From: Defluviitaleaceae bacterium
GTDB taxonomy: Bacteria; Bacillota; Clostridia; Lachnospirales; WQUN01
NCBI GenBank assembly: GCA_009786535.1
Contig: WQRX01000009.1
Span: 1-64,000, forward strand
Length of the DNA: 64,000 bases
Direction: 5' to 3'
Of this stretch, positions 56,641 through 61,637 are shown one piece after another (position 1 is the stretch's first letter; the number at the start of each line of letters is the position of its first letter). Position numbers and translations under genes: made by a program. The notes beneath the pieces were generated by a model, which saw nothing but the letters and a program-made list of their open reading frames with translations, had not been told where the DNA came from and searched no databases.

Positions 56641-57867
56641 TTAATTAAAATAACACATTCTGTCATGTGTATAACGTCGCTCCTCCGGTGGTAGCATACG
56701 ATAATCCAATAAATATATTTGCATTAAATATTCATGCCACATCACAGGAACAGAAAATAATTCACCTTCAAATTCCATTTGAATACTATCTTTAAAATAT
56801 TCTTTGCTTACATATTTTTTATATAAAAACCGTTGTTTTACGAATTTTTCTCTTACTTCATTAAATATAATAGACTTCAACTTGAAAAAAGGCTCTTTAA
56901 CAAAATCATGCAGCTGCACCACCACTTCACTACCTTCGTAAGGCATGTCCCGCTTTGCTTGTTCAATATCCTCTCGCATATCGGGAACAGCGTCACCTAG
57001 CAAATCCCGTTCATTCATATGCTTGTACCACATAAAATCAAGGGCTGCCTTTTTCGTTATATATTTTTCAAATGCAATGGGTTCCTTGGGGGCGCCGTTT
57101 AAAGGAATAATGCACATGGTTAAAGGCTTTTTACGCACACTAAGGAAACGGCCATCCAACAACGTGGTTTCATTATCGGCAAAGCCTGCTATATCAAAAG
57201 CATCGTTATATCCTGTACGCCAGTGGATAACTTCATATCTTTCATTTCTTGGGTAAATATCAATAAAACGAAGATAATCCTCATAAGGCATAAAAACATC
57301 CACATCATCGTCCCATGGGATAAAACCCTTATGCCTTGCCGCACCAATTAACGTACCCCCGCCAAGAAAATAACGCAGTTGATGGGCATTACAAAAATTG
57401 CGGAATACAACTAATAAATTAAATAGCGTATTTTGTATTTCTCTTAAGCTCATTTTTTTAAGAAATTGCAATTCTTTGTTAAAGGTTTGATATGCTTTTT
57501 GCACCGCATGCGTACGGCAAATAATAATGCAAATATGACACGCATCAATCCCCATAGCGCATAATGCGTCTTTAATTTCCACCGCGTCTTCAGCATGGAT
57601 TATGTATAAAACATTTGCTTCGTGTCTTTTCATAGAAAAATCCATAGGCACAACAAGCAAGTTATCATATAAAATATCGCCATGATACGCTTTATTTTGT
57701 TCTATCACGTAATGGATGCGCTTGCCGTGGTGTAATAATGCTTTTTGGATAACATCTGTATAGGACGTTTTCCCATACCACGCAATTTTTTTATTGGTTG
57801 CATTCACCAATGCGAGGGTTTCTTCAAATATATATTTTAATGCGTTTATATTACTTACCTGCGCCAT
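56641..57867 (-). CDS. LicD-family phosphotransferase
   Basis: A 408-residue protein. Residues about 135-400 are LicD-like, with RYFLGGGTLIGAARHKGF and IPWDDDVDVFMPYEDY near 165-200, the metal-binding nucleotidyltransferase centre that transfers phosphocholine or another phospho-alcohol to surface glycans. The first 125 residues form a Rossmann-like unit (IAWYGKTSYTDVIQKAL) similar to the second unit of the downstream 696-residue protein. The ATG follows AAAGGGG by seven bases. It is the first gene of the operon behind the putative invertible promoter. Confidence 0.85.
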   Translation of the reverse strand: MAQVSNINALKYIFEETLALVNATNKKIAWYGKTSYTDVIQKALLHHGKRIHYVIEQNKAYHGDILYDNLLVVPMDFSMKRHEANVLYIIHAEDAVEIKDALCAMGIDACHICIIICRTHAVQKAYQTFNKELQFLKKMSLREIQNTLFNLLVVFRNFCNAHQLRYFLGGGTLIGAARHKGFIPWDDDVDVFMPYEDYLRFIDIYPRNERYEVIHWRTGYNDAFDIAGFADNETTLLDGRFLSVRKKPLTMCIIPLNGAPKEPIAFEKYITKKAALDFMWYKHMNERDLLGDAVPDMREDIEQAKRDMPYEGSEVVVQLHDFVKEPFFKLKSIIFNEVREKFVKQRFLYKKYVSKEYFKDSIQMEFEGELFSVPVMWHEYLMQIYLLDYRMLPPEERRYTHDRMCYFN

Positions 57868-57889
57868 AAATGTACCCCTTTAATTATTT

Positions 57890-57913
57890 CACTACCGGTT
57901 TTTGCCGGTAGTG
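57890..57913 (-). promoter_or_regulatory. Hairpin in the leader of the LicD operon
   Basis: CACTACCGG/CCGGTAGTG form a perfect 9-bp stem with a 6-base loop, about 25 bp before the licD start and without a T-run. It would be part of any transcript entering the operon from the invertible segment. It may protect the mRNA 5' end or influence translation. Confidence 0.55.
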
Positions 57914-57925
57914 TATTCGCGCTCC

Positions 57926-57944
57926 CATAAAGTGTACCTTTTGA
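57926..57944 (+). repeat. Left inverted repeat of the putative inverton
   Basis: CATAAAGTGTACCTTTTGA, an exact 19-bp reverse complement of 58085-58103. The match stops at both ends. Confidence 0.9.
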
Positions 57945-57951
57945 GAAGGCT

Positions 57952-57996
57952 CCCAATCGGATAATTATGTGTTAAAAATCCGATTGGGCTTTTTTT
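57952..57996 (+). terminator. Orphan rightward terminator inside the inverton
   Basis: CCCAATCGGAT/ATCCGATTGGG is a perfect 11-bp stem with a 15-base loop, then C and seven Ts. No rightward gene ends here, so the terminator has no visible client in the present orientation. When inverted it would lie just past the recombinase stop in the correct direction. Confidence 0.85.
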
Positions 57997-58038
57997 GTGA
58001 AATTGCCGAAACCCCGATAAATAAAGTAAAATCTTGTG

Positions 58039-58067
58039 TTGCATTTTTTTACACAGTATGCCATAAT
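58039..58067 (+). promoter_or_regulatory. Rightward promoter inside the inverton
   Basis: TTGCAT (58039-58044), 17-bp spacer and CATAAT (58062-58067) with a TG extension one base upstream (TGCCATAAT). In this orientation it would give transcripts antisense to the recombinase gene. After inversion it would face licD. Confidence 0.55.
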
Positions 58068-58084
58068 CACCCGCGAGCGCAGTT

Positions 58085-58103
58085 TCAAAAGGTACACTTT
58101 ATG
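58085..58103 (-). repeat. Right inverted repeat of the putative inverton
   Basis: Exact 19-bp reverse complement of 57926-57944. It is centred in a larger dyad, CAGTTTCA-14 bases-TGAAACTG (58080-58109 or so), giving about 30 bp with two-fold symmetry, as expected for a serine recombinase dimer site. Confidence 0.9.
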
Positions 58104-58112
58104 AAACTGTTA

Positions 58113-58718
58113 TTATATTGACTTTATACTGCGCAATTCCCGCAAACGCCTGTAAAACGTTGATTTTGTTAGCCCTGTTTGCACCAGTGCTTCTTCAAAC
58201 GTTAGCACCCCTTCTTCCCATTGCGCCACCACCTCTGCGAAATTTTCGGGAGGCTTTTTTATAGGACGCCCAAATTGTACGCCACGTTCCTTGGCGGCGG
58301 TAATGCCTTCCGCTTGGCGGGTAAATATGTTTTCCCGCTCGTTCTGCGCTACAAAAGATAAAATTTGCAATACTACATCTGTAAGGAATAAATCGACCAA
58401 GCCTTTTTCACGCCGCGTGTCTAACAAAGGCATGGTAATTACGGCAATGTCTACGCCGCGTTCTTTGGTAAGTGTGCGCCATACTTGTTGGGTTTCCTCA
58501 TAATCGCGCCCCAGGCGGTCTATGGAATGAATGTACAGCAAATCCCCCGCCGTTAATCGACCCATCAATGCCAGCCATGCGGGGCGGTCAAAATCCTTGC
58601 CCGACTGCTTGTCCACATAAATATGTGTAGGCAATATGCCCATCGCGTGCAGCGCGTTTAATTGACGCGCTTCGTTTTGCTCCGCTGTAGATACACGGCA
58701 ATAACCGTATGTTTTCAT
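58113..58718 (-). CDS. Serine recombinase (resolvase/invertase family)
   Basis: A 201-residue small serine recombinase. The nucleophile is Ser10 in YGYCRVSTAEQN. The catalytic Arg region is HSIDRLGRDYEE near 65, followed by the long E helix with FVAQNERENIFTRQAEG near 125. A C-terminal helix-turn-helix (about 160-195; EALVQTGLTKSTFYRRL) binds DNA. Length and layout match Hin/Pin invertases and Tn3-type resolvases. The ATG follows AAGGAGAAAGCT. No transposase accompanies it, and the exact 19-bp inverted repeats lie immediately downstream, so an invertase role is favoured. Confidence 0.9.
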   Translation of the reverse strand: MKTYGYCRVSTAEQNEARQLNALHAMGILPTHIYVDKQSGKDFDRPAWLALMGRLTAGDLLYIHSIDRLGRDYEETQQVWRTLTKERGVDIAVITMPLLDTRREKGLVDLFLTDVVLQILSFVAQNERENIFTRQAEGITAAKERGVQFGRPIKKPPENFAEVVAQWEEGVLTFEEALVQTGLTKSTFYRRLRELRSIKSI

Positions 58719-59197
58719 AGCTTTCTCCTTTTCAACACAAAAAGCACGACCATATCGTCACATAGCCGTGCTTTCGCATTGTAAATAAATTAGGTTGTTT
58801 GCTTTGCGGTACTGCACACGGTAGGCACATTGTCATTTTTACCGCTGCTTACACGCCTGTACAGTTAAAATTAACGTGTAAACAACGAACGACAACGCAC
58901 TTTTCCATGTCGGATAACCGGCGGCTTCGCGTTTGAAAACAACAAACCGCACAAGCATCACCACGCGTGTAAATATACGTGATACTCGCTTGGTTTTTTC
59001 AAATTTGATACATAGTTATCCTAGGGGTAAGTCTTGAGGGGTCAGTACGTCGTCCGTTTTGCGCCGGAGTCGGGTCTTTGCAATAGCCTCGATATAGCGT
59101 GCGGGAGTCGGTCATGTGCCTCTTGACTTGCGCCCAGTATACACCACGGGTTTTGACATTTCCTAAGATTTTGTCAAAGAATATTTTTTACGTGCGC
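58719..59197. other. 479-bp interval without a recognised gene
   Basis: It contains a hairpin at 58741-58774 and two imperfect direct repeats around GGAGTCGG (near 59064 and 59103). There is also a TTTGACA/TGTCAAA dyad near 59151-59175 and repeated GTGTAAA words. I see no tRNA, no coding frame and no insertion sequence. It may hold the recombinase promoter and the remains of earlier insertions. Confidence 0.5.
58741..58774 (-). promoter_or_regulatory. Leader hairpin upstream of the recombinase gene
   Basis: AAAGCACG/CGTGCTTT pair across 18 bases. Read leftwards the stem runs into TTTTTGTG, so it could act as a weak attenuator ahead of the recombinase start, 23 bp downstream. Confidence 0.4.
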
Positions 59198-59773
59198 TTA
59201 ATGCCCTTCTTCCAACTCTGCAATTGCCTTTGTGGGGTGTACCGTGCCAAAGGGGTGCTGGGGCGGTGCGTAGATGGAGTACAGCTTTATTGGCGTATGG
59301 CCAATGTTGGTAAGGTTGTGCCACGCACCTGCAGGTACAAAAATGGCAGAATCTTCAAACGCGGTTTGACGGAAGCTGAGGTTATTTTTGGATGGACCCA
59401 TTTGTACAAGCCCCTGCCCGCCTTCTACGCGCAGAAACTGGTCGGTATGGGGGTGTACCTCCAAGCCGACACTTTCGCCCGGAAGAATGGTCATTAACGT
59501 GCATTGCAAGTTATTCCCCGTCCATAACGTAGTACGGAAGTTTTGATTTTGCATCGTAGCCGCATTAATATTAACTACATAGGGCTGTCCGCCATGGTCG
59601 CAGATAATCATTTCGGGTGGTGGTGGCGGCGTGTAGGGTGGACGAGGAGGCGGAACAGGATGATACGGCGGGTTATACGGCGGGCGGGGCTGGGGGGGTA
59701 CCGGACGCGGTGGCGGCGGGGGATACGGCGGGCGCGGTCTTCCCACAGGCGGGCGGAAAATTCTTCTCATCAT
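59198..59773 (-). CDS. Cupin protein with a proline-rich N-terminus
   Basis: A 191-residue protein. Residues 8-54 are about half proline (repeats of RPPYxPPPPP type). Residues about 70-180 form a cupin: GESVGLEVHPHTDQFLRVEGG supplies two His and a Glu-like metal site (in two parts), and AIFVPAGAWHNLTNIG gives the second cupin motif. The start ATG at 59773 follows GGAGG by seven bases. No signal peptide is seen. The cupin resembles mannose-6-phosphate isomerase-like proteins of unknown substrate; the proline tail may mediate binding to partners or coat layers. Confidence 0.82.
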   Translation of the reverse strand: MMRRIFRPPVGRPRPPYPPPPPRPVPPQPRPPYNPPYHPVPPPRPPYTPPPPPEMIICDHGGQPYVVNINAATMQNQNFRTTLWTGNNLQCTLMTILPGESVGLEVHPHTDQFLRVEGGQGLVQMGPSKNNLSFRQTAFEDSAIFVPAGAWHNLTNIGHTPIKLYSIYAPPQHPFGTVHPTKAIAELEEGH

Positions 59774-59835
59774 ACATAAACCTCCATGCGATAATTTGTA
59801 CACTTCATCTTATGCATGAGTCTTCTCGACGGTTA

Positions 59836-59859
59836 ATACAAATTAATTCGAATTTGTAT
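59836..59859. promoter_or_regulatory. Palindrome between divergent cupin and Hsp70-like genes
   Basis: ATACAAATT-AATTCG-AATTTGTAT is a perfect 9-bp inverted repeat in the 187-bp divergent region. Its position suits an operator for both genes. It does not match the CIRCE element of chaperone operons. Confidence 0.5.
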
Positions 59860-59960
59860 CATCTAGATTTTTTTCGTCAAAAATAGTATGATGGGCAGAC
59901 AAAACAACACGCACCGCACGTATATAAGAACATATTACATTTTCTTAGGAGGGCAATTTT

Positions 59961-61637
59961 ATGGGCACACTTGGACTGGACACGGAACGCGGTTTATTTT
60001 TAGGCATCGACTTCGGTACAACCAACTCTGTGGTAAGCATCTATAATTTCCAAGAAGGGGAAGCGCAGACTATACCCATCGACGGCTCTAACATTTTTCC
60101 AACGGCTATACAATTTGAATCCGACCCGGAGGACGAAAACAAGCTTTCGCGCATTTTTGGCGTACAAGCCAAGGAAGCGGCAATCATTTACCCCCTGTCC
60201 ACGGTGCTTTCCATTAAGCGCTATTTGGGTAGCGAGCAAAAAATTTCTGTAGTGGTGGACGAGAAGGAATACCCCTTCACCCCTGAGCAAATCGCGGGGG
60301 AAATTTTGGGGCATCTCAAGCAAAAAGCCGACGAATACGCACAAGAGGAATTGGGCATTACGGGGGAATTTTCGGGCTGTGTAATCACCGTGCCCGCAAA
60401 CTCTACCGACAAGCAGAAGAAAATGACCAAGGACGCCGCCGTGCTTGCAGGCTTTGACCCCGAGAGCATCTTCCTTCGGCTGGAACCCGCCGCTTCCGCC
60501 ATTTCCTACGCCGTGGGCGAATCGGCAGATAAAAAAGTGCTGGTATACGACTTTGGCGGCGGCACCTTCGACGCCTGCGTACTGCAAATTAAAGTAGAAG
60601 AAACAGGCGAGCCTTCCATTTCAATCCTGTCCACCTACGGCGATAACAACCTGGGCGGCAATGATGTGGACAAAATTATTATGGATATCGTATATGAAGA
60701 ATTTAAAAAACTCACCAACGAAGAAATTGACCTGTTTGACGAAAACGCCGACGACGGCGTATCCAAACGGCAGAAAAAGGTCGCCCTTGTGCGCCTGCAG
60801 CAAGCCGCCAACCAAGCAAAGGAGCGCCTTTCCCACACCAAATCCACCAAAATCACCCTTGCACCCCTCATTCAAGAGCCGCGCATCGTGAATATTAATA
60901 TGGAAATTACGCGCGAGCAATTTCTTTCGCATCAAAGAGTTAATGCTTTGGGCGACAGCGACGCGATTTTTGAAAAATTTCAAGGCAAATCCGTTACGGA
61001 TTTAATTGAAGAAACCCTGCAATGCGTAACCCGCTGTCTGGAAGCGGGCGAATTAAAGGAAGCCGACATTGACGAAATTTTCCTTGTTGGCGGAAGCTCG
61101 TCCATTCTCTACGTGGGCGAAAAAATCACCGAGCGTTTTGGTAAAGAGCCGTTTAAATCGCGTATTTCCCCTGCCCTATCCATTTCACAGGGCGCAGCGC
61201 ATTATTGCAATATGATTATGATGCCCACCGTGCGCGGTCCCGTGGTACATGAACGTACCATTCACCCGCTGGGGCTGGAAATCTCCGGTCGCCGCTTCTT
61301 AGAAATTGTACCCGCGGGGCAGGATATCCCCAAAGAAGGACTTACCATAGACGCGGCAGAGCCGCTTGTAACCAACCACGATAACCTAACCAGCGTTGCC
61401 ATCGTAGTCTACGAAAGCACTTTGCCCACGGGCGAAAAAACGCCTTCCGTCAACCAAGAGGGCATGAAGCGCCTTGCGGGTACGTCCCTTCGCGGCATTC
61501 CCCAAGGTCCGCGCGGGCAGGAAAAAGTAAAGGTCATCTTCCACGTAGGGCAGGACAATATGCTAAAAGTAATGGCACACAGCCTAAGCACCGACGGCGT
61601 TATGACGGAGTTGTCGGTAGATGAGCTGTATGCGTAA
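59961..61637 (+). CDS. Hsp70/DnaK-like protein without the C-terminal lid
   Basis: A 558-residue Hsp70-type ATPase. The nucleotide domain shows LGIDFGTTNSVVS near residue 13, VLVYDFGGGTFDACV near 195 and VGGSSSILYVGEKI near 378. A short beta-type substrate-binding part follows (about 425-558), with TIHPLGLEISG and RRFLEIVPAGQDIP, but the alpha-helical lid of DnaK is missing and no EEVD-like tail is seen. It resembles DnaK-related single-gene proteins, not the main chaperone. The start ATG follows AGGAGGGCAATTTT. Its end overlaps the convergent kinase gene by 38 bp. Confidence 0.88.
   Translation: MGTLGLDTERGLFLGIDFGTTNSVVSIYNFQEGEAQTIPIDGSNIFPTAIQFESDPEDENKLSRIFGVQAKEAAIIYPLSTVLSIKRYLGSEQKISVVVDEKEYPFTPEQIAGEILGHLKQKADEYAQEELGITGEFSGCVITVPANSTDKQKKMTKDAAVLAGFDPESIFLRLEPAASAISYAVGESADKKVLVYDFGGGTFDACVLQIKVEETGEPSISILSTYGDNNLGGNDVDKIIMDIVYEEFKKLTNEEIDLFDENADDGVSKRQKKVALVRLQQAANQAKERLSHTKSTKITLAPLIQEPRIVNINMEITREQFLSHQRVNALGDSDAIFEKFQGKSVTDLIEETLQCVTRCLEAGELKEADIDEIFLVGGSSSILYVGEKITERFGKEPFKSRISPALSISQGAAHYCNMIMMPTVRGPVVHERTIHPLGLEISGRRFLEIVPAGQDIPKEGLTIDAAEPLVTNHDNLTSVAIVVYESTLPTGEKTPSVNQEGMKRLAGTSLRGIPQGPRGQEKVKVIFHVGQDNMLKVMAHSLSTDGVMTELSVDELYA

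What the first reader, a model, noticed from the sequence alone, without database searches (positions are those of the whole stretch)
57926..58103. Putative recombinase-driven promoter switch in front of a LicD-type surface-polymer operon
Seen directly: exact 19-bp inverted repeats 140 bp apart; between them a strong terminator and an extended -10 promoter, both oriented rightwards; a serine recombinase gene that ends 10 bp outside the right repeat; an operon that starts 59 bp outside the left repeat. The terminator has no rightward gene to serve and the promoter points into the antisense strand of the recombinase. Flipping the segment would give each a role: promoter facing licD, terminator ending the recombinase transcript. 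Known biology: serine invertases control phase-variable surface structures (Hin, and Mpi-dependent capsule promoters). Inference: the present orientation is the OFF state for promoter-driven expression of the 50.5-57.9 kb operon, unless read-through from the recombinase gene supplies it.
Basis: partly seen in the sequence, partly recalled or inferred. Interest (0 to 1): 0.93.

Follow-up and report, generated by a model that had tools for sequence, protein, structure and literature searches.

The report
Invertible promoter switch before surface operon
A short promoter-bearing DNA segment, built to be flipped by the neighbouring recombinase, sits in front of a cell-surface gene cluster in a gut bacterium; the same recombinase-segment-gene unit recurs across many Clostridia, where some close relatives carry it in opposite orientations, so it probably switches surface genes on and off and is usually found off.

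Summary
In detail: an exact 19-bp inverted repeat flanks 140 bp holding an intrinsic terminator and an extended -10 promoter, between a small serine recombinase gene and a licD operon. The interpretation (an invertible promoter, now OFF) is well supported, by comparison rather than by reads. Of 130 related recombinase loci, 89 carry an inverted repeat at the recombinase's 3' end, against 11 of 1248 control windows. Most arms are dyads around an identical, usually non-palindromic central dinucleotide (mostly GT/AC), as in serine-recombinase crossover sites. A sigma-A promoter sits about 40 bp inside one arm. It faces the recombinase in about 67 loci (OFF) and the gene in 9 (ON), the mirror position; 47 are ambiguous. 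In two orthologous locus sets (L105/L108; L335 versus L125/L350) flanks align directly but the segment aligns better flipped. The next gene is co-directional in 78 of 84 loci; many are surface, flagellar or glycan genes. The window genome holds two near-copies, one with its recombinase gutted. Flipping at this exact locus is unproven.

The parts
57926..57944 (+). left (gene-side) recombination site, CATAAAGTGTACCTTTTGA, central GT at 57934-57935
   Evidence: perfect inverted repeat; dyad around GT
58085..58103 (-). right (recombinase-side) recombination site, central dinucleotide at 58094-58095
57945..58084 (.). 140-bp invertible segment, shown in the OFF orientation
   Evidence: near-copies at C20
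57952..57996 (+). intrinsic terminator reading rightwards; it would insulate licD from recombinase transcripts after a flip
   Evidence: fold -17.7 kcal/mol, z -4.5, then T7
58039..58067 (+). extended -10 promoter TTGCAT-17-CATAAT facing the recombinase 3' end; its -10 ends 36 bp from the outer edge of the right arm
   Evidence: slot score 8.9, same position as in relatives
58113..58718 (-). small serine recombinase, 201 aa, Ser10 and the other invariant residues present
   Evidence: PF00239; alignment A1; nearest solved structure Sin
58719..59177 (-). recombinase leader: promoter block with dyad 59152-59177 and TATACT 59136-59141, structured RNA, terminator-like hairpin 58741-58774 in front of the RBS
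56641..57867 (-). licD-family gene, first gene of the presumed target operon
   Evidence: PF04991
50508..56632 (-). rest of the presumed operon: two genes without a Pfam family, NAD-dependent epimerase, a gene without a family, IspD/ribitol-5-phosphate cytidylyltransferase-like gene; most neighbours overlap or nearly touch

Best explanation
57926-58103 is a site-specific invertible promoter (an inverton). The adjacent small serine recombinase binds the two 19-bp sites, cuts at their central GT and inverts the 140 bp between them. In the window the promoter faces the recombinase's 3' end (antisense), so the licD operon has no promoter from the segment in front of it: OFF. After inversion the promoter's -10 would lie about 95 bp upstream of the licD start codon, facing it, and the terminator would stand behind it and stop recombinase transcripts: ON. 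This would make the LicD-type surface-polymer operon phase-variable. Shown: the anatomy, recurrence of the module across relatives, the mirrored promoter position in ON and OFF loci, and opposite orientation of the segment in orthologous loci of relatives. Inferred: that this recombinase acts on this segment, that the promoter drives licD, and that the polymer varies. The strong OFF bias is observed; its cause (directional recombination, antisense damping of the recombinase, or selection) is open.
For: IR at the recombinase 3' end in 89/130 relatives against 11/1248 control windows. Dyads with the same central dinucleotide in both arms 103/103, non-palindromic 95/103. Promoter at a fixed distance inside one arm: 43 loci on the recombinase side only, 5 on the gene side only; 67 against 9 with a lower threshold and more loci. 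Flipped segments between directly alignable flanks: L105/L108 and L335 versus L125 and L350. First gene beyond the segment co-directional in 78/84, many of them surface, flagellar or glycan genes. Read-based inversion near chemotaxis genes in Clostridia has been reported (PMC5903667).
Against: No reads, so no direct proof at this locus; no other genome of the family holds this segment. All three copies in this genome and most homologous pairs have the same orientation. In the flipped pairs the segments have diverged a lot (58-68% identity when flipped), so the inversion signal rests mainly on the promoter half. The window promoter is a weaker match than in most relatives (slot score 8.9). 41 of 130 relatives have no detectable IR.
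Confidence: 0.83

Rival explanations
1. The segment no longer inverts here. It is a fixed module whose promoter makes an antisense RNA that limits the recombinase, and the repeats are only recombinase-binding operators.
For: The same orientation in all three copies of this genome and in most homologous pairs; the promoter reads into the recombinase antisense.
Against: Relatives with flipped segments and mirrored promoter positions. Operators alone need no identical, mostly non-palindromic central dinucleotide. Where the segment precedes the recombinase, the promoter faces it in sense.
Confidence: 0.1
2. A small mobile element: recombinase, segment and leader moved together, and the repeats are element ends or resolution sites rather than a switch.
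For: Three copies in one genome that share segment and leader but have different neighbours; the enzyme is nearest to Sin and transposon resolvases.
Against: Both repeats lie on one side of the recombinase, so they do not bound it. The next gene is co-directional and near in most loci. Relatives on viral contigs mostly lack the module (9 of 80).
Confidence: 0.04
3. licD is already expressed in the present orientation by read-through from the recombinase gene, and the inversion, if any, changes the level only.
For: Read toward licD, the hairpin has no T-run after it, so this orientation does not block read-through.
Against: The recombinase sits behind a structured leader with a terminator-like hairpin before its RBS, so read-through should be low.
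Confidence: 0.1

Closest known systems
Invertible promoters (invertons) of gut bacteria, e.g. PMC11892184
   Same: Short IR-bounded promoter segment next to surface genes; often strongly biased to one orientation
   Different: The clostridial group 139 there is tied to tyrosine recombinases; here a dedicated small serine recombinase lies directly beside each segment
C. difficile RecV switches (PMC5903667, PMC7446863)
   Same: Clostridial invertible segments upstream of surface or flagellar genes
   Different: RecV is a tyrosine recombinase acting on several loci (own knowledge); here a serine recombinase sits at each locus
Sin / gamma-delta / Tn552-type resolvases
   Same: Closest solved structures to the recombinase family; small serine recombinase architecture
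   Different: Those resolve direct sites with accessory sites (own knowledge); here two inverted sites flank a promoter
Bacteroides Mpi master DNA invertase
   Same: Serine recombinase that inverts promoters of capsule operons (own knowledge)
   Different: Mpi acts globally; this protein scores 18.9 bits against the Mpi model cut-off of 272
Hin / Gin invertases
   Same: Small serine recombinase, inverted sites, promoter switch (Hin)
   Different: hin lies inside its invertible segment (own knowledge); here the recombinase lies outside

Membership tests
Invertible promoter (inverton) | Inverted repeats bounding a promoter-bearing segment upstream of a target gene | tested here: met
Invertible promoter (inverton) | Both orientations exist in a population | not testable with these tools
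   No reads for this genome. Between species, opposite orientations were found in relatives
Invertible promoter (inverton) | Expression of the target depends on orientation | not testable with these tools
   Needs RNA-seq or reporters
Small serine recombinase (resolvase/invertase) | Resolvase catalytic domain with Ser10 and the conserved arginines | tested here: met
   PF00239; invariant R8, S10, R68, R71 in alignment A1
Small serine recombinase (resolvase/invertase) | Crossover sites that are dyads around a 2-bp centre, non-palindromic for oriented inversion | tested here: met
   Window sites match 15 of 20 dyad positions around GT; family-wide counts
Mpi master invertase family | Score above the curated cut-off of NCBIfam NF009949 | tested here: not met
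   18.9 bits against 272
Hin/Gin Fis-dependent invertases | Recombinase gene inside (Hin) the invertible segment | tested here: not met
   Recombinase gene lies 9 nt outside the right arm
Hin/Gin Fis-dependent invertases | Fis-bound recombinational enhancer | not tested
   No Fis-site search was done

The most novel reading that the evidence does not exclude
A family of dedicated Sin-like serine invertases spread over Clostridia, each paired with a promoter inverton, with built-in directionality that holds nearly all loci OFF. In this genome the recombinase itself sits behind a structured, attenuator-like leader whose promoter dyad recurs at about 20 places, so several switches could be released together by one signal.
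Probability: 0.3. Interest if true: 0.82.

Novelty: new variant of a known kind. Interest (0 to 1): 0.64.

Why it matters
Promoter inversion in Clostridia is known mainly through tyrosine recombinases. A widespread family in which each switch carries its own serine invertase, with a recognisable signature (recombinase, GT-centred dyads, promoter about 40 bp inside one arm, co-directional target), would let phase-variable surface, flagellar and glycan genes be predicted from assembled genomes alone, including uncultured termite- and mammal-gut bacteria. The strong OFF bias, seen even where the OFF promoter would drive the recombinase, poses a concrete question about the direction of recombination.

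Tried and rejected
DNA search for this segment in 38 family genomes found only the own genome. Rfam found nothing in 57000-60000. Viral contigs, hoped to give one locus in both orientations, mostly lacked the module (9 of 80). Antisense repression as the general cause of the OFF bias was weakened by the divergent architecture. Terminator position as a second orientation marker was too sparse: a strong hairpin in 12 of 52 OFF segments (9 on the gene side) and in none of 7 ON. Seven paper searches found no description of this serine family; supplements were not readable, and subscription papers are not held.

Full report
What is there. The window is part of contig C9 of a 3.4-Mb, 72-contig assembly. 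Two relatives match termite-gut 'Defluviitaleaceae' MAGs by contig number, length and match position (G015 = WQSR01, G033 = WQVY01), so the host is probably an uncultured termite-gut clostridium (inference; that these MAGs are from termites rests on their isolate names and my own knowledge).

Other copies in the genome. The segment recurs at C20:53055-53228 (98%), with its own intact recombinase (75% protein identity) and an acyltransferase gene next, and at C20:64481-64652 (92%), where the recombinase gene is reduced to remnants of its two ends and the next gene has no Pfam family. In the third copy both inner half-sites have changed together from GTACC to GTAGG. The segment is far more conserved between the first two copies than the recombinase gene. 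A fourth locus, C13, pairs a 56%-identical recombinase with an unrelated IR segment and then a flagellin-type (FlgL-like) gene. All have the order recombinase, segment, gene.

A family of such modules. Relatives occur in 29 of 38 family genomes (E <= 1e-30), in 93 of 392 order genomes (E <= 1e-58), and at 583 or more places in the GTDB collection, of which the best 80 were fetched, mostly from gut Clostridia. I pooled 135 loci. Of the 130 with enough sequence, 89 have an inverted repeat (score >=13, gap 60-320) near the recombinase stop, against 11 of 1248 control windows from the same loci. A further order-level set gave 39 of 75. The arms are dyads around a dinucleotide that is the same in both arms in 103/103 well-formed cases and non-palindromic in 95, GT or AC in 76. 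That is the expected anatomy of small serine recombinase crossover sites arranged for inversion (established knowledge of that enzyme family). The first gene beyond the distal arm is co-directional in 78/84. Among 72 such proteins Pfam finds AMP-ligases, glycosyltransferases, BspA leucine-rich repeats, CsrA, flagellin-type proteins, MCPs, capsule and teichoic-acid enzymes, and 35 of 82 have an N-terminal hydrophobic segment by a crude test.

Orientation. With a simple sigma-A matrix, the best promoter faces the recombinase in 37 of 40 first-set segments. Its -10 commonly ends 33-47 bp from the outer edge of the arm it faces. In that slot, 43 loci have the promoter on the recombinase side only and 5 on the gene side only: the mirror image expected of an inverted segment. 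With a lower threshold and the enlarged set there are 69 OFF and 10 ON calls, or 67 and 9 after removing three duplicate loci, with 47 ambiguous. The window is OFF (slot score 8.9). The matrix is my own approximation, and the threshold is symmetric for both sides.

Flipped orthologs. L105 and L108 (two Lachnospiraceae MAGs) share 88% identity over 500 bp on the recombinase side and 97% over 500 bp downstream, but their segments align better when one is flipped (46% direct, 65% flipped). L335 against L125 and L350: flanks 69-76% identical, segments 51-53% direct and 58-68% flipped; by BLAST the promoter half of L335 matches L125 at 83%, L130 at 79% and L350 at 77%, all on the opposite strand. 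L112/L360 and L152/L339 share promoter halves on opposite strands. The promoter-based ON/OFF calls agree with the flips (L105, L335, L112, L152 ON; partners OFF). Homologous pairs in the same orientation are still the majority.

OFF bias and its cause. Antisense transcription into the recombinase could damp it in the OFF state, but in three loci (L051, L073, L078) the segment lies between a divergent secreted-protein gene and the recombinase start, and the promoter faces the recombinase in sense, yet these too face away from the surface gene. So directional recombination or selection against expression are equally live. In PMC11892184, over half of read-detected gut invertons have a minor orientation below 1%, so a strong bias is not odd.

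Recombinase control. A terminator-like hairpin lies within 140 bp upstream of the start in 50 of 133 relatives (score >=14) against 0 of 133 shuffled; some of these may end upstream genes. In the window a long leader (z -4.3) ends in such a hairpin before the RBS (z -6.9). Read-through into licD in the OFF state is therefore unlikely to be strong (inference).

Comparison with the known. It works like an inverton. The enzyme is a small serine recombinase, closest among solved structures to Sin, not a member of the Mpi model, and not Hin-like in layout. The closest clostridial systems use tyrosine recombinases (C. difficile RecV, own knowledge; PMC11892184 group 139). PMC5903667 reports inversion signatures near chemotaxis genes in Anaerotignum propionicum and Clostridium thermocellum; some may belong to this family, which I could not check. 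I found no paper describing this serine family, but subscription papers and supplements were out of reach, and group 125 of PMC11892184 could be the same sites.

Verdict. Observation confirmed; interpretation supported at 0.83, with the exact locus awaiting reads. New variant of a known kind.

Noticed in passing
window 58719-59177 (minus strand); loci L255-L279, L374-L402: The recombinase leader starts with a promoter block (dyad TTGACAAAATCTTAGRAAATGTCAAA, then TATACT) found at 21 places in the genome with up to 3 mismatches and none for the reversed control. Many copies are followed by related structured non-coding leaders, up to about 375 bp. Genes after the copies are mixed: recombinases, a restriction-like and a helicase-like gene, a BrnT-like protein and a ribosomal protein, judged from sequence by eye.
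   Followed up: partly
L051, L073, L078: Second architecture: the invertible segment lies between a divergent secreted-protein gene and the recombinase start, with the promoter facing the recombinase; a flip would swap surface-gene and recombinase expression.
   Followed up: partly
L061 and L089: More than two sites beside one recombinase, including long nested repeats in L061, as if several segments could flip in combination.
   Followed up: no
L016, L063, L064, L069: A second short inverted repeat joins a place upstream of the recombinase start to a place inside the segment (e.g. TGACATGGTAGCCG / CGGCTACCATGTCA); perhaps an operator shared by both.
   Followed up: no
L060, L068, L168: In three loci the first gene after the segment looks like csrA, so a switch might act on a global post-transcriptional regulator.
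   Followed up: no
window 57884-57907 (minus strand): A strong hairpin (z -7.9) without a T-run lies in the licD 5' untranslated region, outside the invertible segment.
   Followed up: no
G000 C20:64481-64652 (L014): Segment copy with intact, jointly changed sites (GTAGG) beside a recombinase reduced to remnants; it would be locked unless another recombinase serves it.
   Followed up: no
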